Below, piece after piece: positions 4,785 through 41,703 of a stretch of 64,000 nt of DNA (positions are counted from its first letter, which is position 1; each line of letters starts with the position of its first letter). The stretch is taken from positions 29,316,865 through 29,380,864 of the forward strand of contig OX235275.1 of NCBI GenBank assembly GCA_944472155.2, read 5' to 3'. Position numbers and translations under genes: made by a program. The notes under the pieces are model-generated. The model had not been told where the DNA came from. It did not search any database and worked only from the letters and a program-made list of their open reading frames with translations. Source of the stretch: Trichobilharzia szidati. Taxonomy: Eukaryota; Platyhelminthes; Trematoda; Strigeidida; Schistosomatidae.

Positions 4785-4905
4785 TTATATTAATTTGTTG
4801 TGTAATTGAACAAAAGAGTACAATTCTCGTCGGACATCATGCAAGCGACTGAGTAAATCAGAAGTCACAACGCGAAGATAACACGAAGCAACTGCTAAGC
4901 GCCTT
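4785..4905 (-). CDS. Candidate terminal exon of the micro-exon gene
   Basis: Reading the minus strand, a strong acceptor (TTGTTTTATTTGTAG) ends at 4906. Spliced to it in phase 1, the last micro-exon (ending in C) would give Gln-Gly-Ala and then TAG (4895-4897), closing a 150-codon reading frame. Two further AGs 11 and 14 bases downstream (exon starts 4894 and 4891) keep phase 1 and read through 35 more codons beginning P-V-A-S-C-Y to TAA at 4785-4787, followed by AATAAA. Use of the first or a later AG would therefore switch between a short and a longer C-terminus. The assignment rests on acceptor quality, phase and polyadenylation signal; it has no homology support. Confidence 0.5.
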
Positions 4906-7900
4906 CTACAAATAAAACAAGAGATGTGTGTTGATTAGGCCACATGAATATGACATATATCGAAGAAGATAAACAACCTAGGAAGAAGAGGACTACACAC
5001 GCGAGGTTAGTAAAATTGATACCGACGCAATACAATTTGATTATACATGTTGACAGAAACAAGGTTGGCAGTAAGTGAAGGTATGGAATAACCAAAAAAA
5101 ACATAATTGTCAGTTTGAAATTGGAAACAAACATTCAAAATATCATAGAGAAAAGCAAACGAAAAAAATAATGCAATAAAAAATATATAAACACATTAAT
5201 ATAATATAATAAAACAAACTAATATGCAAGAAAATATAACGAAAAGTGCGCTAGCCCTAATAGTTGAAGAATAATATCAACACAAAACGACAGAACACAA
5301 ACAAAAAATTAAAACTGAAAAAGAATCAATAGGAGATTAATGACTAAAAACATCAACAGGAATTTCATGGAGTAAAAAGATTTAGAAAACTCCGAAGAAA
5401 TAAAATAATTTCAGAGAAAACGAAGAACATGAAATCACATTTTCTATCTCTGAAGATATAGGCACACAGCGAATATCAGTCCTTCACAATACTAGTTTGT
5501 GTCAGTCCACAACACTTTCATAATTTATTCTGCCTATCCAGATCGCTTCTCTACACCTATTGAATTCCATTCACGAATGGTGAATTGAAACAGTCTGTTC
5601 ACAAAGCAGTACCATCCTCAGAGTCATTTTCTGATGATTGCATCTATTTGTGATTGGCGTGATTGTCTACTGACAAGGTGGACGAGAGATTGAAGACGAA
5701 AGAAGACAGAAACTGTAATTGTCGACTGCAGGAGGTGACGTCTGCGTTTCAGAAGGACACGACAACCTAGTAGTGATTACTAGCATGTCTGACAGTTAGA
5801 TATAATAGAGAAGATTTGTAGCTCAGGTGGATGATTTTGGTGTGGTTGTCTTCTCTGAGCTGGATGGTTTGGTTGCGAAGCTTTCATTGCTCTACCGAGC
5901 TACATCTTCAGCACATACTTCGATGTGTGCGCTCAGTAGAGCAATGAAAGCTTCGCAACCAAACCATCCAGCTCAGAGAAGACAACCACACCAAAATCAT
6001 CCACCTGAGCTACAAATCTTCTCTATTATATCTAAATAATACGAGCGGAACACGCTTCTTTCTCTTGGAAAGCGGGAAGACTTCGCGAAACGGCAAGGAT
6101 CCACCAGAGAACAAATATTTTTTTCTCCATGTCTGACAGTATGCTGACTGTGCAGTGCAACACTGGTTTCTGCTCACACTATGTGCTTGCTTCATTTGAT
6201 TTCTGGTCTCCACCGAACTGACTTCCACAAATCGCCTGCATTACAATCTACTGGGAGATCAGGTGATGCGTTACGTGGACAGAGATTTACGCCTTCACGA
6301 AGAACTCAGAAAGGCACAGTTTGAATTTACTCAGCATCTTCCGAATACTATTTCACACCTTATCTGTATTCTCATATTCCACAAATATCAAATTCCCACT
6401 CTGACGCCTATTTCGGATGCATCTGCCTAGTCAATTTTATTCACTGTTTCCATTTATTCATGTCAGCATACACTAATTTGTTTAGGTCAGGTTGGTTGAC
6501 AGATGCTCCCGTCAATTTTTATAACTCTCGCTAATGTAGATATACATATATATCTTGTCATCACATATTGATAGAACAGACTTCGATAATACATGCATTC
6601 GCATGAAAGCACATTTTGACTTATTTTCAACATGATGAAATTATCTATGTATATGTTTACAAATGTGCACATAAGTTCATCCTGAATATTTTCATTCCAA
6701 CAGCTCTATATTTGTACTTGCATGGTGATACTTGGTAATTCATAATAACACCAGCAGTTTATCGGTTGTTTTCCACAATAGCTTTGTAATAAATAAATAA
6801 TTCGGATACATGTTCAAATATAATGTGAATGGCTGTATAATTTCAAATCGTTAATATCCGCAATCCTGCATCATATTACACTGAACAATCCATCAAAACA
6901 AAAAATATATATTCTTAAAAATATATTCTTACGGATAAATTTGTTCTTCAAAATATCTTTTCAAATATACGAAAAAATATTTTATCAAAGGAATGATAAA
7001 AGAAACATTCATAAATATAACATAATTAGCAAAAAAATGACGCTATTGCCAGTTTATTCTAACCCTTCCACGATATAGGCATACAACGAATATCACTCCT
7101 TCACAATACTAGTTTGTGTCAGTCCACAACACTTTCATAATTTATTCTGCCTAACCAGATCGCTTCTCTACACCTATTGAATTCCATTCACGAATGGTGA
7201 ATTGAAACAGTCTGTTCACAAAGCAGTACCATCCTCAGAGTCATTTTCTGATGATTGCATCTATTTGTGATTGGCGTGATTGTCTACTGACAAGGTGGAC
7301 GAGAGATTGAAGACGAAAGAAGACAGAAACTGTAATTGTCGACTGCAGGAGGTGACGTCTGCGTTTCAGAAGGACACGACAACCTAGTAGTGATTACTAG
7401 CATGTCTGACAGTTAGATATAATAGAGAAGATTTGTAGCTCAGGTGGATGATTTTGGTGTGGTTGTCTTCTCTGAGCTGGATGGTTTGGTTGCGAAGCTT
7501 TCATTGCTCTACCGAGCTACATCTTCAGCACATACTTCGATGTGTGCGCTCAGTAGAGCAATGAAAGCTTCGCAACCAAACCATCCAGCTCAGAGAAGAC
7601 AACCACACCAAAATCATCCACCTGAGCTACAAATCTTCTCTATTATATCTAAATAATACGAACGGAACACGCTTCTTTCTCTTGGAAAGCGGGAAGACTT
7701 CGCGAAACGGCAAGGATCCACCAGAGAACAAATATTTTTTTCTCCATGTCTGACAGTATGCTGACTGTGCAGTGCAACACTGGTTTCTGCTCACACTATG
7801 TGCTGCTTCATTTGATTTCTGGTCTCCACCGAACTGACTTCCACAAATCGCCTGCATTACAATCTACTGGGAGATCAGGTGATGCGTTACGTGGACAGAG

Positions 7901-10900
7901 ATTTACGCCTTCACGAAGAACTCAGAAAGGCACAGTTTGAATTTACTCAGCATCTTCCGAATACTATTTCACACCATACCTGTATTCTCATATTCCACAA
8001 ATATGAAATTCCCACTCTGACGCCTATTTCGGTTGCATCTGCCTAGTCAATTTTATTCACTGTTTCCATTTATTCATGTCAGCACTCATCAAATTGTTGA
8101 TGTCACGTGGGTTGAAACATTTTCTCGTCAGTGTGTCTTCACTCTCAATAATATTGTTGTACATAATCATATATATTCAGTAAACATATTTTGATAGAGC
8201 AGACTTCGATGCCACAAGCATTTGTATGAAAGCACATTTTGAGATATTTTCAATATGATATACTTATCTATGTATATGTTTACAAATGTGCACAGAAATT
8301 CATCCTGGTTATTTTCATGTAATGAGCTGTGTATTTGTGCTTGCATGGTAATGGTTGTTTACTCATACTTTCACCAGCAGTTTGATGATTGTTATCCACA
8401 ATTACGTTTTTGTAAATAAATTATTCGGATGCATGTAAACACAATATTTTTGGAACGTAGGGTGTCTTTTTTCCATGATGTTTCCAATTTTCAATTTTTA
8501 TAAATATAATTCAGCAATCTTTCAAAATGAGAAATTTCTCCAGAAAATACTTACTTTTCACGCAGTTTTTCTTAACTACATTGAGAAATATTAAAATGTC
8601 ATTTTGAATTCAAATATTGTAGAATACATTCTTGATAAATAAATAAAATATAGAAAAGACAACGAAGAACAATACAGTTCAAACTTAATCAGTGTTGCGT
8701 AGGCACACAGCGAATATAACCAATCAACAATAATAGTTTGTGTCAGTCCACAACGTTTCATTATTTGTTGTGCTTATCCAGATAGGTTCTCTACACCTAT
8801 TGAATTCCATTCACGAATGGTGAATTGAAACAGTCTGCTCACAAAGCAGTGTCATCCACAGAGACTTTGTGATGATTGCATCTATTTGTGATTGGCGTGA
8901 TTGTCCAATGACATGGTAACGCGTACTCGAACTACTTAGAAAGGCACACTTTGGATTTACTCAGCATCTTCCGAATACTATTTCACACCTTATCTGTATT
9001 CTCATATTCCACAAATATCAAATTCCCACTCTGACGCTTATTTCGGTTGCATCTGCCTAGTCAATTTTATTCACTGCTTTCATTTATTCATGTCAGCATC
9101 CATCGAATTGTTGATGTCACGTGGGTTGAAAGATTCTCTCGTCAGTGTTACTTCACTCTCCGTAATATTGTAATACATATTTATATGTATATATATATGT
9201 TTATATTTATGTATATTTGGTGAACACATTTTGATAGAACAGAATTCGATGCTACTTGCATTGGGATGAAAGCACATTTTGACTTATTTTCAATATGATA
9301 AATTTATCCATGTATATGTTGACAAATGTGCACAAAGTTCATCCTGGCTATTTTCATTCAATCAGCCCTATATTTGTACTTGCATGGTGATTCTCGATAT
9401 TTCATAAATTCACCAGCAGTTTATCGGTTGTTTTCCACAATAACTTTGTAATAATTAAATTATTCGGATTCATGTTCACACACCATATTGCAAGCCTTGT
9501 AATTCAAAAACTGTTTTTTCCTTCCAAGGTCATACTGTTTTCACATATACCTTAAAACTTCAAAAATTATTATATTTAGCAAAATGGATATACCTTTTAC
9601 ACAGTCTTCGTGATTTGCATTGTCGAAAAAAATGAAATTTAATTCATTTTGATTATTTCAAATGAAATGTGTCAAAATAGAAAAAGTCATTATTAATGCA
9701 GCCAAACACTGGACAGAAAAGCTCTTCTATTTAACGCCGTATGCATACAGCGACTCTTTCTTCATCACATTACAAGTTTGTGTCAGTCCACAACGTTTTC
9801 ATAATTTGTTCTGCCTATCCAGATCGCTTCTCTACACCTATTGAATTCCATTCACGAATGGTGAATTGAAACAGTCTGTTCACAAAGCAGTACCATCCTC
9901 AGAGTCTTTTTCTGATGATTGCATCTATTTGTGATTGACGTGATTGTCTACGGACAAGGTGGACGAGAGATTGAAGCCGAAAGAAGACAGAAACTGTAAT
10001 TGTCGACTGCAGGAGGTGACGTCTGCGTTTCAGAAGGACACGACAACCTAGTAGTGATTACAAGCATGTCTGACAGTATGCTGACTGTGCAGTGCAACAC
10101 TGGTTTCTGCTCACACTATGTGGTTGCTTCATTTGATTTCTGGTCTCCACCGAACTGACTTCCACGAATCGCTCGCATTACAATCTACTGAGAGATCAGG
10201 TGATCCGTTTCGTGGACAGAGATTTACGCCTACCCGAAGAACTCAGAAAGGCACAGTTTGAATTTACTCAGCATCTTCCGAATACTATTTCACACCTTAT
10301 CTGTATTCTCATATTCCACAAATATGAAATTCCCACTCTGACGCCTATTTCGGATGTATCTGCCTAGTCAATTTTATTCACTGTTTCCATTTATTCATGT
10401 CAGCATTCATCGAATTGTTGATGTCACGTGGGTTGAAACATTTTCTTGTCAGTGCATTTTTACTCTACGTATTATTGTCAAATATCTGTGTATATATAAA
10501 TGTATGTAGTCAACACATTTTGATAGAACAAGCTTCGATAATGCATGCTTTCCTATGAAATCACATTTGGACTTATTTTTTTACTATCATTAAATTATCT
10601 ATATATTTGTTGACAAATGTGCACATAAGTGCATCCTGGCTATTTTCATGTTATCAGCTGTATATTTGTATCTGCATTGTAATACTTGTTTACTCGTACA
10701 TCACCTGCAGTTCATCCGTTTGTATCTACAATAATTTGTTATTAATAAACTTTTCTTATCTATGTTTTCACACAATATCCATAACCTGTGTCGTCAGCAT
10801 AATACTGTTTCGAATGCAAATAAATAATTCTTTCAAAAAATTATTTTAATTGGAAGCAATAAAAAAATTGACAAAGAAGTGAAGAAGAGTGCCAGGAAGG

Positions 10901-13900
10901 ACAAAAGACAATTCTACGACAACCTGGCTACTGAAGCTGAGAAGGTTGCATCTGCCTAGTCAATTTTATTCACTGTTTCCATTTATTCATGTCAGCACTC
11001 ATCAAATTGTTGATGTCACGTGGGTTGAAACATTTTCACGTCAGTGTATCTTCGCTCTCATTTATATTATTATACATATACATATATTTCAGTCAACACA
11101 TTTTGATAGAAAAGACTTCGATAATACATGCTTTCGGATGGGAGCACATTTTGACTTATTTTCGATATGATCAAGTTATCTATTTATATGTTGACAAATA
11201 TGCACAAAAGTTCATCCTGTCTACTTTCAGGTAATCAGCTGTATATTTGTAATTGCAGGGTGATTCTTGTTTACTCATACTTTCTCCGGCAGTTTATCGG
11301 TTGTTATTCACATTTTTTTATAAATCATTCATTGGAATACATGTTCACGAACCACGTTATTCCCTGCACCATCCCAGATTATTGTGAAATAGTTCGAAAA
11401 AATCTTTGTGACAATGCCTCATGATAACGGATATACATATATATTTAACTGTATACCTACCACGTCTGCATTCTTTGAAGTTTGCAATCGAAAGTAATAA
11501 AAATAAATTTAAATGTTAACGTAAAACACATTCAATAAAATATGTAAGTCATACAAAAGATAACGAAGGCCTTGGCAGTACACTCTGAACCTATGACGAC
11601 ATAGCCACAAAGCGAATATCACCACTCCAAAATAATAGTTTGTGTCAGTCCACAACACTTTCATAATTTATTCTGCCTATCCAGATCGCTTCTCTACACC
11701 TATTGAATTCCATTCACGAATGGTGAATTGAAACAGTCTGTTCACAAAGTAGTATTATCCTCAGAGTCTTTTTCTGATGATTGCATCTATTTGTGATTGA
11801 CGTGATTGTCTACGGACAAGGTGGACGAGAGATTGAAGCCGAAAGAAGACAGAAACTGTAATTGTCGACTGCAGGAGGTGACGTCTGCGTTTCAGAAGGA
11901 CACGACAACCTAGTAGTGATTACAAGCATGTCTGACAGTATGCTGACTGTGCAGTGCAACACTGGTTTCTGCTCACACTATGTGGTTGCTTCATTTGATT
12001 TCCGGTCTCCACCGAACTGACTTCCACAAATCGCCTGCATTACAATCTACTGAGAGATCAGATGTTCCGTTATGGGCACAGAGATTTACGCTTACCTGAA
12101 CTATTTCGATAGCCACAGTTTGAATTTACTCAGCATCTTCCGAATACTATTTCACACCATATCTGTATTCTCATATTCCACAAATATCAAATTCCCACTC
12201 TGACGCCTATTTCGGATGCATCTGCCTAGTCAATTTTATTCACTGTTTCCATTTATTCATGTCAGCATACACTAATTTGTTTAGGTCAGGTTGGTTGACA
12301 GATGCTCCCGTCAATTTTTACCACTCTCGGTAATATTGATATACACGTATGTTTTTTCATCAACCTTTTGATAGAACAGACTTCGATGATACATTCTTTC
12401 GAATGAAAGCAAATTTTGACTCTTTTTAATATGATAAGTTTATTTATGTATATTTTGACAAATGTGCACAAACGTTCATCCTGGCTATTTTCATTCAGTC
12501 GGCTGTATATTTGTACTTGCATGTGGATACCTGTTTACTCATATATTAGCCATCGGTTTATCGGATTTTCACCACAATAACTTTGTTTTAAATAAATTGT
12601 TCGCATTCATCTTCTTACGCTATTTAGTAATCTTATCAGTATCATCTCCAAATCTTTCAATTTTTCGAGATATAATTTAGGAAAATAAATCAAGATATAT
12701 ATAATCAAAACCAGAGGAAAATATATTTACCTTTATCAGTGTCTTCGTTTTTCGCATTTCGGTAATAAAAGAATAAAATTAAAATTAATAATAAAAGTAC
12801 AGAAAAAGATGATAGAAATTAAATAAATAAATACACCACAAAATTCCCGGTGTAACAACAGAAGACAAGGGCCAGGCAACAGATCAGTTTTATTACGAAA
12901 ACCAACAGGTATTTATATGTTTTTTACGTACATTAATAAGGCTCTGCCCGCAGAAAGAAGGCGGTCTTCTGATTGGTTGTTTGCGAACAAACGCAGTCTT
13001 CTGCTTTCTCGTTTTCGATATTTCTCGGAAATGCGAGCCACTTGTCTGCGAATCATATTTGTGCACGTCTAGGTCAGCTGTGATCGGTTGTTGAATCAGC
13101 CTAGATTAATTTCCACCAATCAGCGTAGATCAATGTCTACCAATTGGCTAGCAGCTTGCTCTCACCACACTCGTCCCCCCGTCAAATACCTTGGACTGAA
13201 TTCGGCTCGGTCTTCTCGGTTCTTGGGGCTTTGCTCTGTTGTCTTGCTGTCTGGAATCTCGGCGCTTGCGGATGTCCACTTGTTTAACGGTGTTTACCAT
13301 TGCGATTGTGTCTGCGTAACCCCATCTCAACGCGACCATATATGGTCCTTCCCACTTTGGAAACTGTTTGCCTGACCCTGTCGCACATTCTTAGGTATTT
13401 CGCCTCACACTTCCATATGCTGCTTTCTTCCGACCACTCAGCAGCGTCCCAAGTAGCAGCCTCATCGCTGACAGATCTTGAACGCTACTCAACTGCGAAG
13501 AAGCCTCAAAGTCCTGCCCGAAGACCCATATGTCTCCATCATAAACTGCAGGGCATAGGCTTTCCACTTGTCGAAAGGCAGCGACAACAAATGTAACAAC
13601 AGAAGACAAGGGCCAGGCAACAGATCAGTTTTATTACGAAAACCAACAGGTATTTATATGTTTTTTACGTACATTAATAAGGCTCTGCCCGCAGAAAGAA
13701 GGCGGTCTTCTGATTGGTTGTTTGCGAACAAACGCAGTCTTCTGCTTTCTCGTTTTCGATATTTCTCGGAAATGCGAGCCACTTGTCTGCGAATCATATT
13801 TGTGCACGTCTAGGTCAGCTGTGATCGGTTGTTGAATCAGCCTAGATTAATTTCCACCAATCAACGTAGATCAATGTCTACCAATTGGCTAGCAGCCTGC

Positions 13901-28900: not shown

Positions 28901-29427
28901 ACAGAAACTGTAATTGTCGACTGCAGGAGGTGACGTCTGCGTTTCAGAAGGACACGTCAACCTAGTAGTGATTACAAGCATGTCTGACAGTATGCTGACT
29001 GTGCAGTGCACACCGGTTTCTGCTCACACTATGTGGTTGCTTCATTTGATTTCCGGTCCCCACCGAACTGACTTCCACAAATCGCCTGCATTACAATCTA
29101 CTGAGAGATCAGGTGTTCCGTGACAGGCACAGAGATTTACGCCTACCCGAACAACTCAGAAAGGCACAGTTTGAATTTACTCAGCATCTTCCGAATACTA
29201 TTTCACACCATATCTGTATCCTCATATTCCACAAATATGAAATTCCCACTCTGACGCCTATTTCGGTTGCATCTGCCTAGTCAATTTTATTCACTGTTTT
29301 CATTTATTCATGTCAGCATTCATCGAATTGTTGATGTCACGTGTGTTGAAAGATTCTCTCGTCAGTGTATTTTCACTCTGCCTAATAATGTAATACGTAT
29401 ATATATGTGTATGTAAATATATGTAAT

Positions 29428-29458
<31 letters not shown>

Positions 29459-32400: not shown

Positions 32401-35400
32401 TTTTATACCGTCATTGCAGAACCCAACTATAAATTTATCAAAATCACATTGCATTTAGAAATAATTTTTATAAAAATTAAACGAAAAAAATATAACATCA
32501 TTTGCAAGCTGACGAAAATCTGCGGCGTTCATTCTAAATATCTGACGATATAGTCAAAGAGCGAATATCACCCCTTCAAAATACTTGTTTGTGTCAGTCC
32601 ACAACGTTTTCATAATTTGTTCTGCCTATCCAGATCGCTTCTCTACACCTATTGAATTCCATTCACGAATGGTGAATTGAAACAGTCTGTTCACAAAGCA
32701 GTACCATCCTCAGAGTCTTTTTCTGATGATTGCATCTATTTGTGATTGGCGTGATTGTCTACGGACAAGGTGGACGAGAGATTGAAGACGAAAGAAGACA
32801 GAAACTGTAATTGTCGACTGCAGGAGGTGACGTCTGCGTTTCAGAAGGACACGTCAACCTAGTAGTGATTACAAGCATGTCTGACAGTATGCTGACTGTG
32901 CAGTGCAACACTGGTTTCTGCTCACACTATGTGGTTGCTTCATTTGATTTCTGGTCTCCACCGAACTGACTTCCACAAATCGCCTGCATTACAATCTACT
33001 GAGAGATCAGGTGTTCCGTTATGGGCACAGAGATTTACGCCTACCCGAAGAACTCAGAAAGGCACAGTTTGAATTTACTCAGCATCTTCCGAATACTATT
33101 TCACACCTTATCTGTATTCTCATATTCCACAAATATCAAATTCCCACTCTGACGCCTATTTCGGATGCATCTGCCTAGTCAATTTTATTCACTGTTTCCA
33201 TTTATTCATGTCAGCATTCATCGAATTGTTGATGTTACGAGGGTTGAAAATTATCGCGTCAGTGTGTCTTCGCTCTCTTTTTATTATTATACATATATAT
33301 ATATATGAATATATATATATGTTTATATTTAGTCAACACATATTGATAGAACAGACTACGATACTGCATGCATTGGGATGAAATTGCACTATGACTTATT
33401 TTCAATATGATAAAATTATCAATGTATATGTTGACAAATGTGCACATAAGTGCATCCTGGCTATTTTCATATTATTAGCTGTATATTTGTACTAGCACGG
33501 TGATACTTGTTTACTCGTACTTTCAACAACAGTTTTTCGTTTTTTATGCAAAATATCTTTGTTTTAAATAGAAAATTCGGATCCTTTTCCAAACAAGATT
33601 TTATAGCAACTAGAATGAGAATGCTTTAGGATTAATCTCACAAGAACATATAATAATCACGAAATTCATTTGAAAGTTTATTAAAAAATATTGATCATTT
33701 AAAATTTACTTGTATCACACACTGCCATTTTGAGGAATGCAAAGAAATTTATGTTTTCTTGACAATATTTCAATAGTATAAATAAATGGTTAAAGAAATA
33801 ATTATTACCAAGCTCACCAATAGAATGCCACATCAGTGTTTCTCTTTCAAGACAAAGCCATACACCAAATAACACTCCTTCACAATACTACTTTGTGTCA
33901 GTCCACAACGCTTTCATAATTTGTTCTGCCTATCCAGATCGCTTCTCTACACCTATTGAATTCCATTCACGAATGGTGAATTGAAACAGTCTGTTCACAA
34001 AGCAGCACCATCCTCAGAGTCTTTTTCTGATGATTGCATCTGTTTGTGATTGGCGTGATTGTCTACTGACAAGGTGGACGAGAGATTGAAGCCGAAGGAA
34101 GACAGAAACTGTAATTATCGACTGCAGGAGGTGACGTCTGCGTTTCAGAAGGACACGACAACCTAGTAGTGATTACAAGCATGTCTGACAGTATGCTGAC
34201 TGTGCAGTGCAACACTGGTTTCTGCTCACACTATGTGGTTGCTTCATTTGATTTCTGGTCTCCACCGAACTGACTTCCACAAATCGCCTGCATTACAATC
34301 TACTGAGAGATCAGGTGTTCCCTGACAGGCACAGAGATTTACGCCTACCCGAACAACTCAGAAAGGCACAGTTTGAATTTACTCAGCATCTTCCGAATAC
34401 TATTTCACACCATATCTGTATTTTCATATTCCACAAATATCAAATTCACATTCTGACGCCTATTTCGGTTGCATCTGCCTAGTCAATTTTATTCACTGTT
34501 TCCATTTATTCATGTCAGTATTCATCGAATTGTTGATGTCACGTGGGTTGATAGATTCTCCCTTCAGTGTACCTTCACTCTGCACAATATTGTGATATGT
34601 ATATATAGATTTATTTAATCAACACTTTTTGATGGATCAGACTTCGATACTGCAGTCATTTGGATGAATGCTCACTTTGACTTTTTTAATATATGATAAA
34701 ATTATCCATGTATATGCTGACAAATGTGCACAAAGTTCATCCTGGCTATTTTTTTGTTGTCAGCTGTATATTTGTTTTTGCATGGTGATACTTGTTTACT
34801 CATACTTTCACCAGCAGCTTATCGATTGTTATCCGCAATAACTATGTTTTGATTGAATTATTCTTATTCATGTTAAAAATCTATTTATTTGTTACAAAAT
34901 TGCCTACTTATTTTGATGGTTATATTAATACATTTTCAAATGTGTTCCCACAAAATTTCAGATATAAAATATTATCAATAATTCTTACATTCTTTGCAGT
35001 TTGCATATGCTAAAAACAGAAAATAAACAAAAACGAATTCTGATGATTTCTTTTAAAAAACTATACGAATAAACAAACAATATTACCAGGATAACGAAAC
35101 ACTGGCAGCTCATTCTAAGTCTTTGAAAACAAAGGAAAACAGCGAATATCAGTCCTTCACAATACTAGTTTGTGTCAGTCCACAACGTTTTCATAATTTG
35201 TTGTGCCTATCCAGATCGCTTCTCTACACCTATTGAATTCCATTCACGAATGGTGAATTGAAACAGTCTGTTCACAAAGCAGTACTATCCTCAGAGTCTT
35301 TTTCTGATGATTGCGTCTATTTGTGATTGGCGTGATTGTCTACGGACAAGGTGGACGAGAGAGTGAAGCCGAAAGAAGACAGAAACTGTAATTGTCGACT

Positions 35401-38400
35401 GCAGGAGGTGACGTCTGCGTTTCAGAAGGACACGACAACCTAGTAGTGATTACAAGCATGTCTGACAGTATGCTGACTGTGCAGTGCAACACTGGTTTCT
35501 GCTCACACTATGTGGTTGCTTCATTTGATTTCTGGTCTCCACCGAACTGACTTCCACAAATCGCCTGCATTACAATCTACTGAGAGATCAGGTGTTCCCT
35601 GACAGGCACAGAGATTTACGCCTACCCGAACAACTCAGAAAGGCACAGTTTGAATTTACTCAGCATCTTCCGAATACTATTTCACACCTTATCTGTATTC
35701 TCATATTCCACAAATATCAAATTCCCACTCTGACGCCTATTTCGGTTGCATCTGCCTAGTCAATTTTATTCACTGTTTCCATTTATTCATGTCAGCATTC
35801 ATCAAATTGTTGATATCACGTGTGTTGAAATATTCACTCGTCAGTGTTTCTTCACTTCGTAATATTGTAATACATATATATATGTAAATATTTATATATA
35901 TATATGTATATTTAGTCAGCATATTTTGATAGAACAGACCTCGATACTACATGCATTGGGATGAAAGTGCACTATGACTTATTTTCAATATGATAAAATT
36001 ATCTATGTATATGTTGAGAAATGTGCACAAAGTTCATTCTGGCTATTTTCATGTTATCAGCTCTACATTTGTTCTTGTATGATGATACTTGTTTACTCAT
36101 ACTTTCACCAGCAGTTTATCGGTTGTTATCCACTATAAATTTGTTCAAAATATATTATGCTATTTCATGTTCGGGCCTAATTTTACAGGCAATTGATTGT
36201 CAACTTCTTTTCATGACACTCGCTGATATATAGTTCTTAATCTTATCACGCTTTAATAGGAAAATATTATAAGACATTTGCTTACTTTTCTTGCAGTATT
36301 CTTGAAGTGCAGTAGAAAATAAAAAAATTTCATTAAAACTTGGCCCTACAAGAACTAAAGAAATCAAATAATATCATTCGCAAATCAAGAAAAAATTGCC
36401 ACTTCACTATCTCCATATGACGTCAGGCTCACAGCAAATAACACTCCTTCAAAATACTTGTTTGTGTCAGTCCACAACGTTTTCATAATTTGTTCTGCCT
36501 ATCCAGATCGCTTCTCTACACCTATTGAATTCCATTCACGAATGGTGAATTGAAACAGTCTGTTCACAAAGCAGTACCATCCTCAGAGTCTTTTTCTGAT
36601 GATTGCATCTGTTTGTGATTGGCGTGATTGTCTACTGACAAGGTGGACGAGAGATTGAAGCCGAAAGAAGACAGAAACTGTAATTGTCGACTGCAGGAGG
36701 TGACGTCTGCGTTTCAGAAGGACACGACAACCTAGTAGTGATTACAAGCATGTCTGACAGTATGCTGACTGTGCAGTGCAACACTGGTTTCTGCTCACAC
36801 TATGTGGTTGCTTCATTTGATTTCTGGTCTCCACCGAACTGACTTCCACAAATCGCCTGCATTACAATCTACTGAGAGATCAGGTGTTCCGTTATGGGCA
36901 CAGAGATTTACGCCTACCCGAACAACTCAGAAAGGCACAGTTTGAATTTACTCAGCATCTTCCGAATACTATTTCACACCTTATCTCTATTCTCATATTC
37001 CACAAATATCAAATTCCCACTCTGACGCCTATTTCGGATGCATCTGCCTAGTCAATTTTATTAACTGTTTCCATTTATTCATGTCAGCACTCATCAAATT
37101 GTTGATGTCACGTGGGTTGATAGATTCTCTCGTCAGTGTAACTTCACTCTGCACAATATTGTGATATATATATATATTTATTTGATGAGCACATATTGAT
37201 AGAACAGACTTCGGTGCTACATGCATTCTGATGAAAGCTCATTTGGACTTATTTTCAATATGATAGAATTATCTATGTATATGTTGAGAAATGTGCACAA
37301 AAGTTCATCCTGGCTATTTTCATGTAATCAGCTCTATATTTGTACTTGCATGGTGATACTTTTTACTCATATTTTCACCAGCAGTTTATGGGTTTTTATC
37401 CACATTAACTTCGTTATAGATAAATGGTTCGCATCCTTGTTCACACACACACACACTTTATTTGTTACCGAATTGTTAACTATGGAGAGTTTTATTCCTC
37501 CAAATTCATTAAATATCAAAGGCGGTTATTCGTATTACATTTTATTTTAAACAATATTTATTTACCTTCAATGCAGGTTTTCACTATAATATTTCGTTAA
37601 AAATATATCTTTTAATTTGCTTCACATTCAAAATATTTCATGATGAAAGATGAATTCATTCCCCACCTTACGAATAACTTGCCAGTTCATTCTCTATCTC
37701 TGACAACATAGGCACACAGCGAATATCAGTCCTTCACAATACTGGTTTGTGTCAGTCCACAACGTTTTCATAATTTGTTGTGCCTATCCTGATCGCTTCT
37801 CTACACCTATTGAATTCCATTCACGAATGGTGAATTGAAACAGTCTGTTCACAAAGCAGTACTATCCTCAGAGTCTTTTTCTGATGATTGCATCTGTTTG
37901 TGATTGGCGTGATTGTCTACTGACAAGGTGGACGAGAGATTGAAGCCGAAGGAAGACAGAAACTGTAATTATCGACTGCAGGAGGTGACGTCTGCGTTTC
38001 AGAAGGACACGACAACCTAGTAGTGATTACAAGCATGTCTGACAGTATGCTGACTGTGCAGTGCAACACTGGTTTCTGCTCACACTATGTCGTTGCTTCA
38101 TTTGATTTCCGGTCTCCACCGAACTGACTTCCACAAATCGCCTGCATTACAATCTACTGAGAGATCAGGTGTTCCGTTATGGGCACAGAGATTTACGCCT
38201 ACCCGAACAACTCAGAAAGGCACAGTTTGAATTTACTCAGCATCTTCCGAATACTATTTCACACCATATCTGTATCCTCATATTCCACAAATATGAAATT
38301 CCCACTCTGACGCCTATTTCGGTTGCATCTGTCTAGTCAATTTTATTCACTGTTTCCATTTATTCATGTCAGCATTCATGAAATAGTTGATGTCACGTGG

Positions 38401-41400
38401 GTTGATAGATTCTCTCGTCAGTGTAACTTCACTCTGCACAATATTATGATATGTATATATAGATTTATTTGATCAACACATATTGATAGAACTGACTTCG
38501 ATACTACATGCTTTCGGATGAAAGCACACTTTGACTTATTTTAATATGATAGAATTATCTATGTATATGTTGAGAAATGTGCACAAAATTTCATCCTGTC
38601 TATTTTCATGTTATCAGCTGTATATTTGTATTTGCATGGTGATACTTGTTTACTCATACTTTCACCAGCAGTTTGTCGGTTTATATCCAAAATAACTTTT
38701 TTATGAAGTAATTTTTCGAATCCCTGTTCACACACCATTTTTCAAGGCCTATATTTTCAACCTGTTTTGATGCTGCTAGCTTAAATTATTTTATGAAAAC
38801 AATCCATTATAATATATAGTAAATATTTTGAAAATATCAATTTACATTTTGTTTTGTCTTCAGCTTTTTGATTGAGGAATAAAATAAAATATTATTGAAT
38901 TGAATTTATTATAACAAATTCATGATAACAGATAAAATCTTTTTCAAGCTCACGAAGAACTTGCCCGTTCATTCTCTATCTGTGACGACATAGGCATACT
39001 GCGAATATCACTCCTTCACAATACTATATATATGTCTGATTTTCCACAAACTTTAAGATATGCAAGCGGAAATCAACAAGTTGGTAGAAGAAGCATCGAA
39101 GATAGTACTTCAGGTAAACATAGAGTAGATAGATGTGATGAAGATTCCTTGGCAACACCATCAACAGCAACAACGACAACAACAGACAATAATCAGCATA
39201 AATGGGAGGAACCTGAAAGAAACGACCTCTTTTACCTACCGACCTGGGAAGCATCGTTTCAACTACAGGCACACGGAACTGACGAGGATATCAAAGCAAG
39301 AATCGGAAAAGCAAGAAAAGCTTTCAATACTCTCAAGTCTGTGTGGATGTCAACAGCACTCGGCGTGAAAAATAAGATCCGGATTTTCAAATCCAATGTG
39401 AAGTCAGTGCTACTCACTATACGGTTCAGAGACTTGCACTGCACGTCATAAAGAGCATCTCAAACAAACTACAGACCTTCATTAACAGTTGTCGTTGCTC
39501 AATACTCAAGATCAGATAGCCGGCCAGAAAAGATCAGCAACAGAGATCTCTGGGAGCGAACCAACCAGTAGCTGGCTGTGAAACAAATAGGCAGGAAGGA
39601 ATGGAGATGGATTGGCCATACTCTGAGGAAACCATCAAGTGACATCACTAGACATGCCTTTGATTAGAAACCTAAAGGGAAGCGGCGAGTTGGTCGTCCA
39701 AGTGTGACTTGAAGGAGGTCATGTGAAGAGGAGATGAAAACGTGTGGGCAGACTTGAAGCCAGGTGAAGACTCTAGCAGAGAACCGAACGCAATGGAGAC
39801 GCACGACTGAAGCCCTATGTTCTTCTAGGAGTTAAAGGATACAATAATAATAATAATACAATACTAGTTTGTGTCAATGCACAACGTTTTCATAATTTGT
39901 TGTGCCTATCCAGATCGGTTCTGTACACGTATTGAATTTTATTTACGAATGGTGAGTTGAAACATTCTTTTATGAAAGCAGTACCAATCTTTTAGTCTTT
40001 GTATTGGTCGCATCAATATGTATTTCTCATGATTGTCTACTTCTCTTTGGATCGCTTCTAATGAAGCTATCCTAATAAGATTCTTATTCTCAGATTTTTC
40101 TGTTAATATGCTTTTTGTTGCTTTTTTCTTGCTTATCTTTTTCAGATGTTCCTAATTGCATTAATAATATATATATCAGTTAATTTCCTTATTTCTTCAA
40201 CCAATATTTTAATTTTTTATCGTTTTACTTGTAAATTTATTTCCCTGATGTGTGATTATTCAATCTCCAAGCTACAGCCATTTTCTCTGTGAAAAACTTT
40301 GACTTCTTCAACTGGATAATATGTCACTTAACATTTATGTGCATTATAGATTTTCAAAATGCTGTGGAATTCCATCTCTCAAATAATTGCATAAATGTTT
40401 CTATTTTATGCTATGTAGAATCGTGTTTTTATAAAAACAAAATTAAGTTAAGATTTTCAATCTATTGAGAGCAGTTCAGTTATTCACATAACTAATATTT
40501 CTGCCAAAGTTGACTATTTGCACAGTTTTATATGAGGCTTGTGCATATTTCATGAATGCGGTGGATTGATCACCTGGTAATACATTTCATACTGTTCGTT
40601 CAAATACGTGAATTTATTGCTGAATGTGATTTGAGAGGGGCGGATGAAAACAGGTGTGATATTCTCTAATGTCTTTTGTTCAGAATTGGAGAATGATATC
40701 TAATTTCAGTAATGATGTGTTTTACTAAAAGTGTTTTGGTCATTCAAACCATACAGCGTGATAGTCTTTAGTTTACTGTTGCATCGCTATCCTTAAGCTG
40801 GACGTCTGTAGTTTAGCGTTTTATTTGACTAAGTGTTAACACTATAAAGGACCGTAGTGACCATAAATCTACCCATGTCATTAGCAAATCAGTTATATTC
40901 CTAAGGCTAAACGTTAACAGCGATAAATAATTTGCTGGAATGAAAGTCACTACAAGTCTGCATTAAAAGGTTTAACATTATCATAGAAATGTGTAGAGTT
41001 GTTCTCATTTACTTCATACTAAATCAAATATTAGAAGGACTAAAATCACACTAGCATGAACAGTGTTATTTATGCACTCAAGAATAACACCTTCACCTAA
41101 TTAGAGTGTTAGATTAGTGTCCAAGCAATGATTTGGACGGTTTCAGCTGTATTTCCCGTCCTCTTCACAATTTTAGTGGTTATGCTTATCAAAGTATTAC
41201 AGTATTTAATGGTGAACATATTGGCTAATATGAAACTTATTTAATCAATCTCTGATCAATGCACATATATAAATGTTCATGAGGTTTCCACTATTCCGTG
41301 GAATATATTATAAGTTTGTCTTGAACTGTTTCTATCATGGTATTCGCAATATCTACAATGTCTGCTGTTGACATAATCAACCAATTTCATAGAATTAATC

Positions 41401-41656
41401 AGAAACACGTACATGTAAACTCAAATTACACAGCTCAATATAACCTATGTAAATCAGTTCAACTTTGACAACATTGGGGTTTCAGTAAAGTGACAATGAA
41501 ATTTAAAAAGTAATACGCCAAAACTGCTTTGAATATGTCAAATTCTACTTGAAACAATAATAATCACATAAAATTGTACTTACATGCTTCGCTTGGCTTG
41601 ATGAATATTGTGAATGCTTGAACGATCAACAACAGCGCACAGAACTTCATCATCAT
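4895..41656 (-). CDS. Secreted cysteine-rich micro-exon gene (MEG-type), ~37 kb, 1 signal exon + 23 micro-exons + terminal exon
   Basis: Role: predicted secreted protein. In schistosomes, micro-exon genes are known for a signal-peptide exon followed by very short symmetric exons and for products released from oesophageal glands and eggs; the tissue here is not known. Seen: TATA box, signal exon 41584-41656 ending in phase 1, then 23 micro-exons of 12-27 nt, one per tandem unit, all open in phase 1. Signal exon (73 nt), micro-exons (369 nt) and the short terminal exon close exactly: 150 codons plus stop. Frame 0 would meet stops in nine micro-exons, phase 1 in none. Fifteen micro-exons encode one Cys, usually as Glu/Asp/Asn/Gly-Cys-x-x. 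Because every exon is phase 1-1, any can be skipped without a frameshift. Introns are about 1.25 kb, except where transposons enlarge them or units were rearranged. Identity to a named MEG is not claimed. The main uncertainty is the acceptor choice in a few exons and the terminal exon. Confidence 0.85.
5567..5580. repeat. Unit hairpin (first of 23), CCATTC-AC-GAATGG
   Basis: A 6-bp stem with a 2-base loop, embedded in AATTC...GAATT so the arms can extend with mismatches. It is kept in 22 of the 23 good copies (one C-to-T change at 30091 onward) and is used here as the unit landmark. Function unknown; it may only reflect homogenisation of the core. It lies about 250 bp beyond each micro-exon, on the side of the exon's donor. 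Confidence 0.7.
5797..6127. mobile_element. 331-bp fold-back element, copy 1
   Basis: A 99-bp arm (5797-5895) and its inverted partner (5936-6034) flank a 40-bp loop; a 93-bp tail follows (6035-6127, ending TTTTTTTCTC). The insert is bracketed by a 13-bp target duplication CATGTCTGACAGT (5784-5796 and 6128-6140) inside an array core that is uninterrupted in other units. The arm contains GTAGCTCAGGTGG and GGTTGCGAAGC, resembling tRNA A- and B-box sequences, so a tRNA-derived SINE captured as a palindrome is possible. It encodes nothing convincing. The 70-codon ORF across it is a mirror artefact of the palindrome. Confidence 0.85.
6933..6956 (-). CDS. Micro-exon m23 (24 nt)
   Basis: Last micro-exon in transcript order. 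Donor gtaaga; acceptor ...TATTTGAAAAG. Phase 1 reading gives N-I-L-K-N-K-F-I, no cysteine. A nearer AG would give 13 nt and break the frame. It lies 251 bp from the hairpin of the unit at 7184. Frame 0 would contain TGA. Confidence 0.6.
7414..7744. mobile_element. 331-bp fold-back element, copy 2
   Basis: Nearly identical to copy 1 and at the same place in the unit, 1617 bp downstream (right arm ends about 7651; target duplication copies at 7401-7413 and 7745-7757). Because insertion site and duplication match, this copy arose by duplication of the whole unit after the element inserted, not by a second insertion. One visible difference is GAGCGG versus GAACGG in the tail. Confidence 0.85.
8555..8575 (-). 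CDS. Micro-exon m22 (21 nt)
   Basis: Donor gtaagt (near consensus), acceptor TTTCTCAATGTAG. Phase 1 peptide V-K-K-N-C-V-K. Frame 0 has TGA and phase 2 has TAA, so only phase 1 is open. It lies 252 bp from the hairpin at 8807. Confidence 0.8.
9594..9605 (-). CDS. Micro-exon m21 (12 nt)
   Basis: Donor gtatat, acceptor AATCACGAAG. Phase 1 peptide D-C-V-K. Identical to m16 (17663-17674) because both lie in the 1.83-kb duplicated segment. Frame 0 ends in TAA. Inclusion of both would repeat the tetrapeptide. Confidence 0.75.
10860..10944 (+). mobile_element. 85-base scar of RTE LINE 5' junction
   Basis: Sequence from AATAAAAAAATTG through TGAAGCTGAGAAG matches the 5' junction and first codons of the RTE insert at 18.93-19.01 kb and stops mid-codon, where it meets GTTGCATCTGCCTAG of an array unit. 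It is a passenger of the segmental duplication, not an independent insertion: there is no 3' end, tail or target duplication. Confidence 0.85.
11461..11472 (-). CDS. Micro-exon m20 (12 nt)
   Basis: Donor gtaggt, acceptor AAACTTCAAAG with a T/C-rich stretch upstream. Phase 1 peptide E-C-R-R. It lies 249 bp from the hairpin at 11710. Confidence 0.75.
12731..12742 (-). CDS. Micro-exon m19 (12 nt)
   Basis: Donor gtaaat, acceptor AAAAACGAAG downstream of a T-rich tract. Phase 1 peptide N-T-D-K, no cysteine. Phase 2 contains TGA. The LTR element at 12851 lies in the upstream intron, between m18 and m19. Confidence 0.75.
12851..13169 (-). repeat. LTR (left; 3' LTR if element is on the minus strand)
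   Basis: 319 bp, starting TGTAACAACAGAAG and ending CTCACCACA. Its partner at 13592-13910 is aligned without gaps. Confidence 0.85.
13592..13910 (-). repeat. LTR (right; 5' LTR if element is on the minus strand)
   Basis: 319 bp. It differs from the left copy at about three bases (AATCAACG versus AATCAGCG, and two near the CA end). Followed by the target duplication CCGG and then array sequence. Confidence 0.85.
15076..15093 (-). CDS. Micro-exon m18 (18 nt)
   Basis: Donor gtaaga, acceptor TTTAACGTTTAG. Phase 1 peptide V-K-H-K-N-I. Frame 0 begins with TGA. It lies 252 bp from the hairpin at 15328. A closer AG would give 13 nt and break the frame. Confidence 0.75.
16355..16372 (-). CDS. Micro-exon m17 (18 nt; 15-nt NAGNAG form possible)
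   Basis: Donor gtgaat, acceptor ATTTTTCTGAACAG, one of the best in the array. Phase 1 peptide E-A-N-C-F-G. The acceptor is followed by AAG, a NAGNAG tandem, so a form shorter by one codon (15 nt) is possible and also in frame. Confidence 0.8.
17182..19013. repeat. Segmental duplication, copy B (matches 9113-10944)
   Basis: The likely source copy: here the RTE insertion is complete and continues to 20799, whereas copy A ends after 85 bases of it. Left of 17182 the two regions also resemble each other, but only at the level expected between ordinary array units. Confidence 0.9.
17663..17674 (-). CDS. Micro-exon m16 (12 nt)
   Basis: Donor gtatat, acceptor AATCACGAAG. Phase 1 peptide D-C-V-K, identical to m21. 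It lies 254 bp from the hairpin at 17917. The intron between m15 and m16 holds the RTE insertion. Confidence 0.75.
18939..20799 (+). mobile_element. RTE-type LINE, 5'-truncated, inserted antisense in an intron
   Basis: A 12-bp target duplication AATAAAAAAATT (18927-18938 and 20800-20811) brackets the insert. It ends in an ATAATAATAATA tail typical of RTE-family LINEs. The endonuclease and the start of the ORF are missing. The reverse transcriptase is readable: FIDFEKAFDSVDR (first catalytic Asp), GVRQGCLLSPMIF, and LDFADDLCLMS with the catalytic Asp pair. The SR2/RTE group of schistosomes is the likely family (from memory of the motifs). It lies between m15 and m16, opposite in orientation to the gene. 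Confidence 0.95.
18948..20791 (+). pseudogene. RTE reverse transcriptase, truncated and broken
   Basis: Reverse transcriptase domain over about the first 360 codons (18948-20030), then thumb and C-terminal region (YLGSIVSTTGGTDEDVKSRI, IRIFNTNVKSILLYGSETW) and the C-terminal tail (KGKRRVGRPRVTWRR). Defects: a frame change after LCLMSLAQ near 20018, another near 20085, and in-frame stops TAA (20501-20503) and TAG (20543-20545). The catalytic motifs are intact, but no full-length protein can be made from this copy. The upstream endonuclease domain is absent through 5' truncation. Short flanking ORFs on the other strand are shadows. Confidence 0.93.
20826..20837 (-). CDS. Micro-exon m15 (12 nt)
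   Basis: Donor gtaaat, acceptor GGATAAATTAAG with a T-rich tract upstream. Phase 1 peptide I-S-L-K, no cysteine. Frame 0 has TAA. It lies only 15 bp from the RTE target duplication, so the LINE inserted just inside the following intron without destroying the donor. Confidence 0.7.
22109..22120 (-). CDS. Micro-exon m14 (12 nt)
   Basis: Donor gtaaat, acceptor CCACAAATTTAG after TTCTTCTCTACTCC. Phase 1 peptide D-Q-S-K, no cysteine. It lies 251 bp from the hairpin at 22360. Confidence 0.75.
23388..23414 (-). CDS. Micro-exon m13 (27 nt; 18-nt form possible)
   Basis: Perfect donor gtaagt, acceptor TTCGTTTGTTTATAG. Phase 1 peptide T-M-R-D-N-E-C-R-Y, the longest in the array. An internal AG would give an 18-nt form (23388-23405, N-N-E-C-R-Y), also in phase, so alternative acceptor use would be frame-neutral. 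Confidence 0.85.
24670..24681 (-). CDS. Micro-exon m12 (12 nt)
   Basis: Donor gtaaat, acceptor AAAAACACGAAG. Phase 1 peptide G-C-L-T. Frame 0 gives TAA as third codon. It lies 252 bp from the hairpin at 24922. Confidence 0.75.
25952..25963 (-). CDS. Micro-exon m11 (12 nt)
   Basis: Donor gtatat, acceptor AAAACTCGAAG. Phase 1 peptide E-C-E-K. It lies 254 bp from the hairpin at 26206. Confidence 0.75.
27232..27249 (-). CDS. Micro-exon m10 (18 nt)
   Basis: Donor gtaaac, acceptor TTAATATATCAG after a TTTTTATTACTTTC tract. Phase 1 peptide D-D-A-L-R-E, charged and without cysteine. It lies 250 bp from the hairpin at 27482. Confidence 0.75.
28509..28520 (-). CDS. Micro-exon m9 (12 nt)
   Basis: Donor gtaaga, acceptor GAATAACCCACAG. 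Phase 1 peptide I-F-D-D, acidic, no cysteine. Phase 2 contains TGA. It lies 253 bp from the hairpin at 28762. Confidence 0.75.
29840..29851 (-). CDS. Micro-exon m8 (12 nt)
   Basis: Donor gtaaag, acceptor GTCACACGAAG. Phase 1 peptide G-C-G-S. It lies 251 bp from the hairpin at 30091. Confidence 0.75.
31118..31138 (-). CDS. Micro-exon m7 (21 nt)
   Basis: Donor gtatgt, acceptor AACGGTGTAAAG. Phase 1 peptide E-L-K-S-C-K-G. Frame 0 has TAA. Two nearer AGs (giving 11 or 13 nt) would break the frame, so the acceptor is partly chosen by frame and is the weakest call among the cysteine exons. Confidence 0.6.
32409..32426 (-). CDS. Micro-exon m6 (18 nt)
   Basis: Donor gtataa, acceptor GATAAATTTATAG. 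Phase 1 peptide I-G-F-C-N-D. It lies 250 bp from the hairpin at 32659. Confidence 0.8.
33710..33721 (-). CDS. Micro-exon m5 (12 nt)
   Basis: Donor gtaaat, acceptor CTCAAAATGGCAG with a TTTCTTTGCATTCC tract. Phase 1 peptide L-C-D-T. Phase 2 contains TGA. It lies 253 bp from the hairpin at 33963. Confidence 0.8.
34989..35009 (-). CDS. Micro-exon m4 (21 nt)
   Basis: Donor gtaaga, acceptor TTTTCTGTTTTTAG, an excellent tract. Phase 1 peptide T-Y-A-N-C-K-E. It lies 251 bp from the hairpin at 35240. Confidence 0.85.
36286..36300 (-). CDS. Micro-exon m3 (15 nt)
   Basis: Donor gtaagc, acceptor CTGCACTTCAAG. Phase 1 peptide E-Y-C-K-K. It lies 246 bp from the hairpin at 36532. Reading the first codon as Glu requires m2 (ending G) upstream; direct joining to an exon ending in T would make it a stop, so skipping of m2 alone would place TAA here if m1 is joined directly. 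Confidence 0.75.
37566..37583 (-). CDS. Micro-exon m2 (18 nt)
   Basis: Donor gtaaat, acceptor GAAATATTATAG. Phase 1 peptide L-K-T-C-I-E. Frame 0 begins with TGA. It lies 251 bp from the hairpin at 37817. Confidence 0.8.
38846..38863 (-). CDS. Micro-exon m1 (18 nt; 12-nt form possible)
   Basis: First micro-exon after the signal exon. Donor gtaaat, acceptor CTCAATCAAAAAG. Phase 1 peptide S-E-D-K-T-K, continuing directly from the signal peptide's terminal Ala. An internal AG gives a 12-nt form (38846-38857), also in phase. No cysteine. Confidence 0.75.
39027..39857 (+). mobile_element. RTE-type LINE 3' fragment
   Basis: The target duplication ACAATACTA (39018-39026 and 39858-39866) splits what would be the 24th array unit. 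The insert begins just after the position of the FADD motif (YICLIFHKL...), continues through a degenerate C-terminal region with frameshifts and stops (RIGKARKAF, KGKRRVGRPSVT) and ends in an ATAATAATAATA tail. It is a shorter, older relative of the 18.9-20.8 kb element, inserted antisense in intron 1. Confidence 0.9.
40040..41583 (-). other. Unique part of intron 1
   Basis: Array similarity fades at about 40.03 kb. The remaining sequence up to the signal exon is AT-rich and without long ORFs. I searched the minus strand for GTAAR donors with an in-frame AG: candidates near 40.78 and 41.03 kb would read TGA or TAA after the signal exon, so no extra micro-exon is called. Confidence 0.5.
41584..41656 (-). 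CDS. Exon 1 coding part: signal peptide of the micro-exon gene
   Basis: Starts with three consecutive ATGs (41656, 41653, 41650) and encodes 24 codons: MMMK then a hydrophobic run FCALLLIVQAFTIFI, then KPSEA, a typical secretory signal with a likely cleavage after Ala24. It ends with one extra base (T) at a consensus donor gtaagtac, i.e. phase 1, matching the phase of all 23 micro-exons. A TATA box lies 40 bp upstream of the first ATG. Transcription start is probably near 41.67 kb. Confidence 0.88.
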
Positions 41657-41695
41657 CTTCTATTCCGAGAACGTGTAAACAAATAAAAACAAGTC

Positions 41696-41703
41696 TTTAT
41701 ATA
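41696..41703 (-). promoter_or_regulatory. TATA box of the micro-exon gene
   Basis: TATATAAAG on the minus strand, 40 bp upstream of the first ATG. This spacing would give a short 5' UTR of roughly 10-20 nt. The element alone is weak evidence in AT-rich DNA, but it is correctly placed for the signal exon. Confidence 0.65.

What the first reader, a model, noticed from the sequence alone, without database searches (positions are those of the whole stretch)
4895..41656. A ~37-kb micro-exon gene with one frame-neutral micro-exon in each of 23 tandem repeat units
Directly seen: a 1.28-kb array on whose minus strand every spacer holds a GT donor 246-254 bp from the unit hairpin (23 of 23, after subtracting insertions), an AG 12-27 nt upstream in multiples of three, and open phase-1 reading. 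The signal exon, 23 micro-exons and a 3' exon join into a frame that closes exactly. For 19 of 23, the nearest AG at least 9 nt from the donor already gives a multiple of three (about one third expected by chance). Schistosome micro-exon genes are known as a class; I do not recall one embedded unit-by-unit in a homogenised tandem array of this size.
Basis: partly seen in the sequence, partly recalled or inferred. Interest (0 to 1): 0.96.

Follow-up and report, generated by a model that had tools for sequence, protein, structure and literature searches.

The report
Tandem-array micro-exon gene family
In a genome that is probably a blood fluke's, 23 of 24 units of a 1.28-kb tandem array each hold one tiny predicted exon whose splice sites and length are unchanged in the sister arrays compared, while the intron cores between them are kept nearly identical, so the array likely works as a recombining cassette gene that would make varied, cysteine-rich secreted proteins.

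Summary
On the minus strand 23 of 24 array spacers carry a GT donor at one fixed place with an AG a multiple of three upstream; the last spacer does not. Different spacers are only about 45% alike, yet donor place, pyrimidine tract and, in 14 of 20 distinct exons, a Cys codon at -10 persist. In 68 comparisons with sister arrays, GT, AG and exon length are kept 68 of 68, with no indel inside. The signal exon and TATA box match 40 places. Intron cores are homogenised within arrays, spacers are private; a unit loss and a unit duplication switch in or beside the core. No RNA data: splicing is predicted. Outside the Cys codons, exon residues show no purifying selection. The architecture has a precedent: S. 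mansoni polymorphic mucin genes carry a 27-bp exon in each of up to 20 ~1-kb repeats with homogenised introns (PMC2576457 passages). New here: 22 different micro-exons in one array, and a relative with the same exon in all four units read. Verdict: real; new variant of a known kind.

The parts
41695..41703 (-). TATA box (TATATAAAG), 47 nt before the first ATG
   Evidence: TATAAAG kept in 14 of 14 non-C5 copies aligned
41584..41656 (-). signal-peptide exon, CDS part, ends in phase 1 before GTAAGT
   Evidence: 40 matches in the genome; signal peptide judged by eye
38846..38863 (-). micro-exon 1 (18 nt; a 12-nt form from a nearer AG is possible)
37566..37583 (-). micro-exon 2 (18 nt, Cys)
36286..36300 (-). 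micro-exon 3 (15 nt, Cys)
34989..35009 (-). micro-exon 4 (21 nt, Cys)
33710..33721 (-). micro-exon 5 (12 nt, Cys)
32409..32426 (-). micro-exon 6 (18 nt, Cys)
31118..31138 (-). micro-exon 7 (21 nt, Cys; nearer AGs are out of frame)
29840..29851 (-). micro-exon 8 (12 nt, Cys)
28509..28520 (-). micro-exon 9 (12 nt, no Cys)
27232..27249 (-). micro-exon 10 (18 nt, no Cys)
25952..25963 (-). micro-exon 11 (12 nt, Cys)
24670..24681 (-). micro-exon 12 (12 nt, Cys)
23388..23414 (-). micro-exon 13 (27 nt, Cys; 18-nt form possible)
22109..22120 (-). micro-exon 14 (12 nt, no Cys)
20826..20837 (-). micro-exon 15 (12 nt, no Cys)
17663..17674 (-). micro-exon 16 (12 nt, Cys)
16355..16372 (-). micro-exon 17 (18 nt, Cys; 15-nt form possible)
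15076..15093 (-). micro-exon 18 (18 nt, no Cys; a nearer AG is out of frame)
12731..12742 (-). micro-exon 19 (12 nt, no Cys), behind an inserted element; uninterrupted in arrays Bm and A
11461..11472 (-). micro-exon 20 (12 nt, Cys)
9594..9605 (-). micro-exon 21 (12 nt, Cys), spacer identical to unit 16
8555..8575 (-). micro-exon 22 (21 nt, Cys; a nearer AG is out of frame)
6933..6956 (-). micro-exon 23 (24 nt, no Cys; a nearer AG is out of frame)
4895..4905 (-). coding part of the predicted last exon, after TTTTATTTGTAG, ending in a stop; AATAAA at 4703-4708
   Evidence: weak, sister copies are 98.8-99.1% identical here and give little power
5466..39859 (-). tandem array of about 1.28-kb units: homogenised intron cores and private exon-bearing spacers

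Best explanation
The minus strand of 4895-41656 is a predicted micro-exon gene in which a signal-peptide exon would be spliced through 23 tiny phase-1 exons, one in each of 23 of the 24 units of a 1.28-kb tandem array, to a short last exon, and the repeated intron cores likely serve as recombination handles that add, drop or copy exons without breaking the frame. Shown from sequence: a fixed donor place; GT, AG and exon length unchanged in the sister arrays compared; a Cys codon 10 nt before the donor in 15 of 21 uninterrupted units; cores homogenised within arrays with private spacers; a unit loss and a unit duplication that switch in or beside the core; 40 matches of the signal exon in the genome. 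Inferred: that the exons are spliced in vivo, that the product is secreted and disulphide-bonded, that gene conversion is the homogenising process, and that residues around the Cys are free to diversify. One relative array (C6) carries the same exon in all four units read, so the family may begin by amplifying one cassette and diversify its exons later.
For: Donor-like site in one 9-nt window in 20 of 20 distinct spacers, antisense maximum 4, 0 of 2000 rotations. TGY at -10 in 14 of 20, kept in 49 of 49 orthologue comparisons, 0 of 42 Cys-codon columns variable against 33 of 285 other exon columns. GT, AG and length kept 68 of 68; 0 of 84 splice-dinucleotide columns vary, chance 9e-5 at a rate of 0.105; indels 0 in 423 exon and splice sites, 25 in 5247 flank sites. 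Phase-1 stops 0 of 89 codons against 9 of 109 and 10 of 89 in the other phases. Signal exon: TATAAAG, ATG and GTAAGT in 14 of 14 non-C5 copies aligned. Core more alike within an array than to its counterpart for most units, spacer never. Switches in or beside the core.
Against: No transcript or peptide. Exon columns vary as much as flanks (0.097 against 0.095 near and 0.118 farther), and silent changes are 6 of 27 where 0.213 is expected, so the coding residues show no purifying selection outside the Cys codons. Exon ends were chosen with the length rule. The last exon is weak. 17 of 300 possible exon joins would give a stop, so skipping is not wholly free. Sister arrays on one contig could in part be assembly duplicates.
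Confidence: 0.8

Rival explanations
1. It is this lineage's counterpart of the polymorphic mucin (SmPoMuc) genes: a signal exon followed by one small repeated exon in ~1-kb genomic repeats, so neither the kind nor the family is new.
For: Same layout: signal peptide, small exon in each ~1-kb repeat, introns over 94% identical, conversion restricted to introns (PMC2576457 passages). The relative on C6 has the same exon in four of four units read.
Against: Exons are 12-27 nt and 22 of 23 differ from each other (units 1 and 19), not 27-bp repeats of one or two types. Their codons are rich in Lys (17 of 89) and Cys (14 of 89), with Ser plus Thr only 7 of 89, unlike a mucin. The 13 exons behind the repeats were not seen, but there is no transcript.
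Confidence: 0.12
2. A decaying gene array: once a micro-exon gene, now untranscribed, with splice signals not yet lost.
For: Exons vary as much as flanks and show no excess of silent changes. One unit (24) has no exon, and four or more elements are inserted in introns.
Against: 0 of 84 splice-dinucleotide columns and 0 of 42 Cys-codon columns vary although flanks vary at about 0.1; lengths and phase kept 68 of 68; TATA box, ATG and first donor kept in 14 of 14 distant copies.
Confidence: 0.06
3. A non-coding tandem repeat in which splice-like motifs are leftovers of the ancestral unit or chance.
For: All units share ancestry, so some motifs could be leftovers.
Against: Spacers of different units are about 38-49% alike in most of their length, while GT stands at 20 of 20 and TG of the Cys codon at 14 of 20; a signal exon in the matching phase exists in 40 places.
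Confidence: 0.03
4. The exons are alternatives, one chosen per transcript by pairing of a docking site with a selector in each unit, as in insect Dscam (recalled).
For: Conserved core in every unit; all exons have the same phase.
Against: Longest complementarity of intron 1 with a unit is 11 nt; the one 300-nt core folded is no more stable than its shuffles (z -0.67). Phase-neutral exons of this size fit serial inclusion or skipping as well.
Confidence: 0.05

Closest known systems
SmPoMuc polymorphic mucin genes of Schistosoma mansoni (PMC2576457; passages seen)
   Same: Signal-peptide exon, then one small exon in each of up to 20 tandem ~1-kb genomic repeats; introns over 94% identical; conversion restricted to the introns; multigene family.
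   Different: There one 27-bp exon type is repeated and 13 more exons follow; here 22 different exons of 12-27 nt, Cys- and Lys-rich, in one array, and only a short last exon predicted.
Schistosome and tapeworm micro-exon genes (PMC10526429: part 1 of section 5 and the figure and table section; PMC7653826: passages and one section)
   Same: Signal peptide and runs of symmetric micro-exons with long introns.
   Different: The parts seen do not describe one micro-exon in each unit of a homogenised tandem array; PMC5825161 (passages) reports an internal duplication with a repeated exon-length pattern in MEG-26.
MEG-4 / antigen 10.3 (named in PMC4015677 passages, with a cited 1988 title on tandemly repeated exons of 81 bases; that paper not seen)
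   Same: Tandemly repeated exons in a secreted schistosome antigen gene.
   Different: 81-base repeats; no private micro-exons known to me from the passages seen.
Spider silk and Coccidioides SOWgp repeat genes (as discussed in PMC2576457 passages)
   Same: Exon-intron genomic repeats under concerted evolution; introns more homogenised than exons in the silk genes.
   Different: Described there as silk proteins and a fungal outer-wall glycoprotein, not secreted fluke micro-exon products.

Membership tests
Micro-exon gene (criteria of PMC7653826) | At least seven exons, half or more of them micro-exons under 70 nt and divisible by three, with four or more in a row | tested here: met
   On the predicted model: 25 exons, 23 in a row of 12-27 nt, all multiples of three
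Micro-exon gene (criteria of PMC7653826) | Annotated exons backed by transcripts | not testable with these tools
   No RNA data held
Micro-exon gene (schistosome type) | N-terminal signal peptide | tested here: met
   Hydrophobic leader in the first exon, kept in form in 14 of 14 non-C5 copies; judged by eye, no predictor run
Micro-exon gene (schistosome type) | Sequence relation to a named MEG family | not tested
   Needs the joined protein; step referred
SmPoMuc | One small exon in each of many tandem ~1-kb repeats with homogenised introns | tested here: met
   23 of 24 units; cores about 97% alike within arrays
SmPoMuc | Repeated 27-bp exon of one or two types | tested here: not met
   22 different exons of 12-27 nt
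SmPoMuc | Mucin-like (Ser/Thr) repeat domain | tested here: not met
   Ser plus Thr 7 of 89 whole codons, Lys 17, Cys 14; that mucin repeats are Ser/Thr-rich is recalled
SmPoMuc | Thirteen further exons behind the repeats | tested here: inconclusive
   A single short last exon closes the predicted frame; no transcript to exclude others

The most novel reading that the evidence does not exclude
A gene family with 40 or more signal-exon copies on several chromosomes of one fluke-like genome uses a 1.28-kb intron cassette as an exon-evolution machine: recombination keeps the intron cores identical and shuffles units without breaking the frame, while each unit's micro-exon escapes homogenisation and drifts freely around a fixed cysteine, so arrays run from clonal (C6, same exon in each unit read) to fully diversified (C5, 22 different exons).
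Probability: 0.5. Interest if true: 0.77.

Novelty: new variant of a known kind. Interest (0 to 1): 0.63.

Why it matters
If the exons are spliced as predicted, one gene shows recombination confined to introns while its exons diversify, with sister arrays that supply a deletion, a duplication and a clonal relative for comparison. That makes the open question of how micro-exon genes arise and diversify directly testable, and it points to a large set of secreted, cysteine-bearing proteins that ordinary gene finders would probably miss.

Tried and rejected
Plus-strand gene: rejected, antisense donor count at most 4 of 20 in any 9-nt window. Known RNA family in the array: none at gathering score in the window's array, three weak matches far below it in one unit. 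Structured core RNA: one core folded, z -0.67. Docking by intron 1: longest match 11 nt. Residue-level purifying selection: not found. Species: not settled. The Hammerhead_1 hit and GC of about 0.37 suggest a blood fluke by recall; the 1.11-Gb size speaks against Schistosoma itself (363-397 Mb in a PMC4404566 passage). The 2010 paper cited for alternative splicing of micro-exon genes (DeMarco et al.) is not held. Paper searches were made; SmPoMuc appeared in the listings. A sixth C5 array near 42.69 Mb was not fetched beyond the short loci L004 and L027.

Rows left out before counts: units 1, 19 and 24 from spacer alignments and the core comparison (inserts or no exon); unit 22 of W, Bp and Bm from the core comparison (too gapped); unit 21 as a copy of 16 and in part of 64 and 69. 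Arrays A and C were fetched only in part (20 and 18 units seen). Of 40 signal-exon matches (72 candidates, 40 scored) 20 became loci; the 14 outside C5 were aligned; five sister copies on C5 were otherwise covered only for Bp, Bm, A and C. A first alignment of these copies mixed strands and was redone. Exon ends were chosen with the length rule, so the length statistic rests on the nearest-AG count.

Full report
What was checked. The window is G000:C5:29316865-29380864 of a 1.11-Gb assembly. A tandem array of about 1.28-kb units fills 5.5-39 kb. Among 17 full-length units about 560 bp are 93-99.7% alike, falling to 40-54% in a spacer of about 280 bp. On the minus strand each spacer but the last has a GT donor at the same place (units 1 and 19 behind inserted elements). 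In 20 distinct uninterrupted spacers the donor-like pentamer lies in one 9-nt window in 20 of 20, against a mean of 2.0 over windows, 8 at most outside, and 4 at most antisense; rotating each spacer at random never gave more than 10 in 2000 trials. The nearest AG at least 9 nt away is a multiple of three in 19 of 23 (17 of 21, units 1 and 19 by eye; P 1.7e-6).

Frame. Read in phase 1, the 20 distinct uninterrupted exons have 0 stops in 89 whole codons; the other phases have 9 of 109 and 10 of 89, and eight shifted controls have 5-10 of 89. Lengths of signal CDS (73), micro-exons (369) and last part (11) sum to 453 nt, and none of the 24 consecutive split codons is a stop. 17 of 300 possible joins would give a stop, all from the three exons that end in T.

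Cysteine. A TGY codon stands exactly 10 nt before the donor in 14 of 20 distinct exons; shifted controls have 0-6 Cys codons in 89 against 14. It is kept in 49 of 49 orthologue comparisons over 15 units (unit 21 included); 0 of 42 Cys-codon columns vary against 33 of 285 other exon columns. Spacers of different units are otherwise about 45% alike, so this is unlikely to be plain leftover similarity. Units 9, 10, 14, 15, 18 and 23 and units 1 and 19 have no Cys there.

Sister arrays. Five arrays on C5 were compared: W (window, 24 units), Bp (16), Bm (24), A (20 seen) and C (18 seen). Spacers correspond one to one in order, 86-100% alike where more than 150 nt align; most different units share no such match, and a few pairs share 67-70%. 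In 68 comparisons over 21 units GT, AG and length are kept 68 of 68 (alignments, counts). No indel falls in 423 exon and splice-dinucleotide sites against 25 in 5247 flank sites. Against this, exon columns vary like flanks (0.097; near flank 0.095, pyrimidine tract 0.087, farther 0.118), and 6 of 27 distinct codon changes are silent where 0.213 is expected: apart from frame, splice sites and Cys, residues look free.

Homogenised cores. In core columns 360-600 a unit resembles the other units of its own array more than its counterpart in another array in 13 of 20 units (W-Bm), 17 of 18 (W-A), 15 of 16 (W-C), 11 of 16 (Bm-C), 12 of 16 (A-C) and 13 of 18 (Bm-A); in the spacer in 0 of 20, 0 of 18, 0 of 16, 0 of 16, 0 of 16 and 0 of 18 (profile). 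The mean differences are small (0.005 to 0.015), and almost no fixed array-diagnostic sites were found (one column for each of four array pairs, none for two), so homogenisation also reaches across arrays. This is concerted evolution that stops short of the exon. Gene conversion is the likely process, by inference.

Unit gain and loss. Bp lacks units 6-13; the joined unit follows unit 6 up to about position 900 of 1638, with 7 scattered sites of the other type, and unit 14 from about 1000 on. C carries unit 9 twice with identical spacers, with the switch near position 1050 of 1661. Both switches lie in or at the edge of the homogenised core, as expected if cores are the recombination handles. 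Units 16 and 21 of W have identical spacers, so exon-bearing spacers are now and then copied too.

Family. The signal exon with its promoter matches 40 places including the window, from 72 candidates of which 40 were scored, on C1, C2, C5, C6, C7 and small contigs, 77-100% identical. In the 14 non-C5 copies aligned, TATAAAG, an in-frame ATG and GTAAGT are kept in 14 of 14 (by eye), and the 20-residue peptide is identical in 5 and changed at 1-6 residues in 9. Units of the same type lie in arrays on C2, C6 and C446 (40 of 546 candidates scored). In L047 (C2) one clear 12-nt exon (4281-4292, by eye) follows a proper acceptor and precedes GTAAGT; a second unit there is ambiguous. In L048 (C6) the same 12-nt exon stands in 4 of 4 units, and two full unit-to-unit comparisons are 100% identical; the third is cut by the array end or an insert. 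The family thus spans clonal and diversified arrays.

How it likely works. A transcript from the TATA box would carry the signal exon, lose an intron of mostly about 1.26 kb at each step, and gain 4-9 codons per unit, giving a secreted chain with frequent cysteines. Because all micro-exons are phase 1-1, unequal exchange in the intron cores changes the number of modules without a frameshift. Spacer divergence would then shield each exon from conversion, and it drifts around the fixed Cys. Splicing, secretion and disulphide bonds are inferred.

Known relatives. SmPoMuc genes of S. mansoni have this architecture: a 27-bp exon in ~1-kb repeats, up to 20, introns over 94% identical, conversion restricted to introns (PMC2576457, passages). 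Micro-exon genes proper (PMC10526429, two sections of which one in part; PMC7653826, passages and one section) share symmetric micro-exons and a signal peptide. The listings of searches showed no paper on a homogenised array with a different micro-exon in each unit, but I read only passages of nine papers and the 2010 paper is not held, so absence from print is not shown.

Caveats. No RNA. Near-identical arrays about 14 Mb apart on one contig could in part be assembly duplicates, which would weaken the comparison with Bp most. The last exon is weakly supported.

Noticed in passing
44079-44123 (-): Hammerhead_1 ribozyme, 54.8 bits, upstream of the gene. SmPoMuc genes also carry hammerhead ribozymes (PMC2576457 passage), so the neighbourhood may be chance or not.
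   Followed up: no
18948-20503 (+): Retroelement remains inside the intron between micro-exons 15 and 16: a reverse transcriptase ORF (RVT_1, E 5.6e-28) and an overlapping second ORF.
   Followed up: partly
39028-39860 (+): Inserted stretch in intron 1 with the A/T-rich 3' end look of a retroelement; about 68% alike to an insert in another array. It splits the unit-1 spacer.
   Followed up: no
12852-13910: Element inserted in the unit-19 spacer of W and Bp but not of Bm and A; it holds two 24-bp repeat pairs.
   Followed up: partly
5790-6160 and 7405-7777: The same insert with long inverted-repeat arms in two neighbouring units (seen by eye).
   Followed up: no
G000:C5:29.24-29.38 Mb and 43.98-44.10 Mb: Two large inverted pairs of arrays, near copies of each other at 96-99%, 14.7 Mb apart on one contig; a real palindromic duplication or an assembly artefact.
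   Followed up: partly
51145-51684 (-), 52075-52437 (+), 56293-56808 (-): Three ORFs that share a long near-identical stretch in both orientations; no Pfam match for the first, the only one scanned.
   Followed up: no
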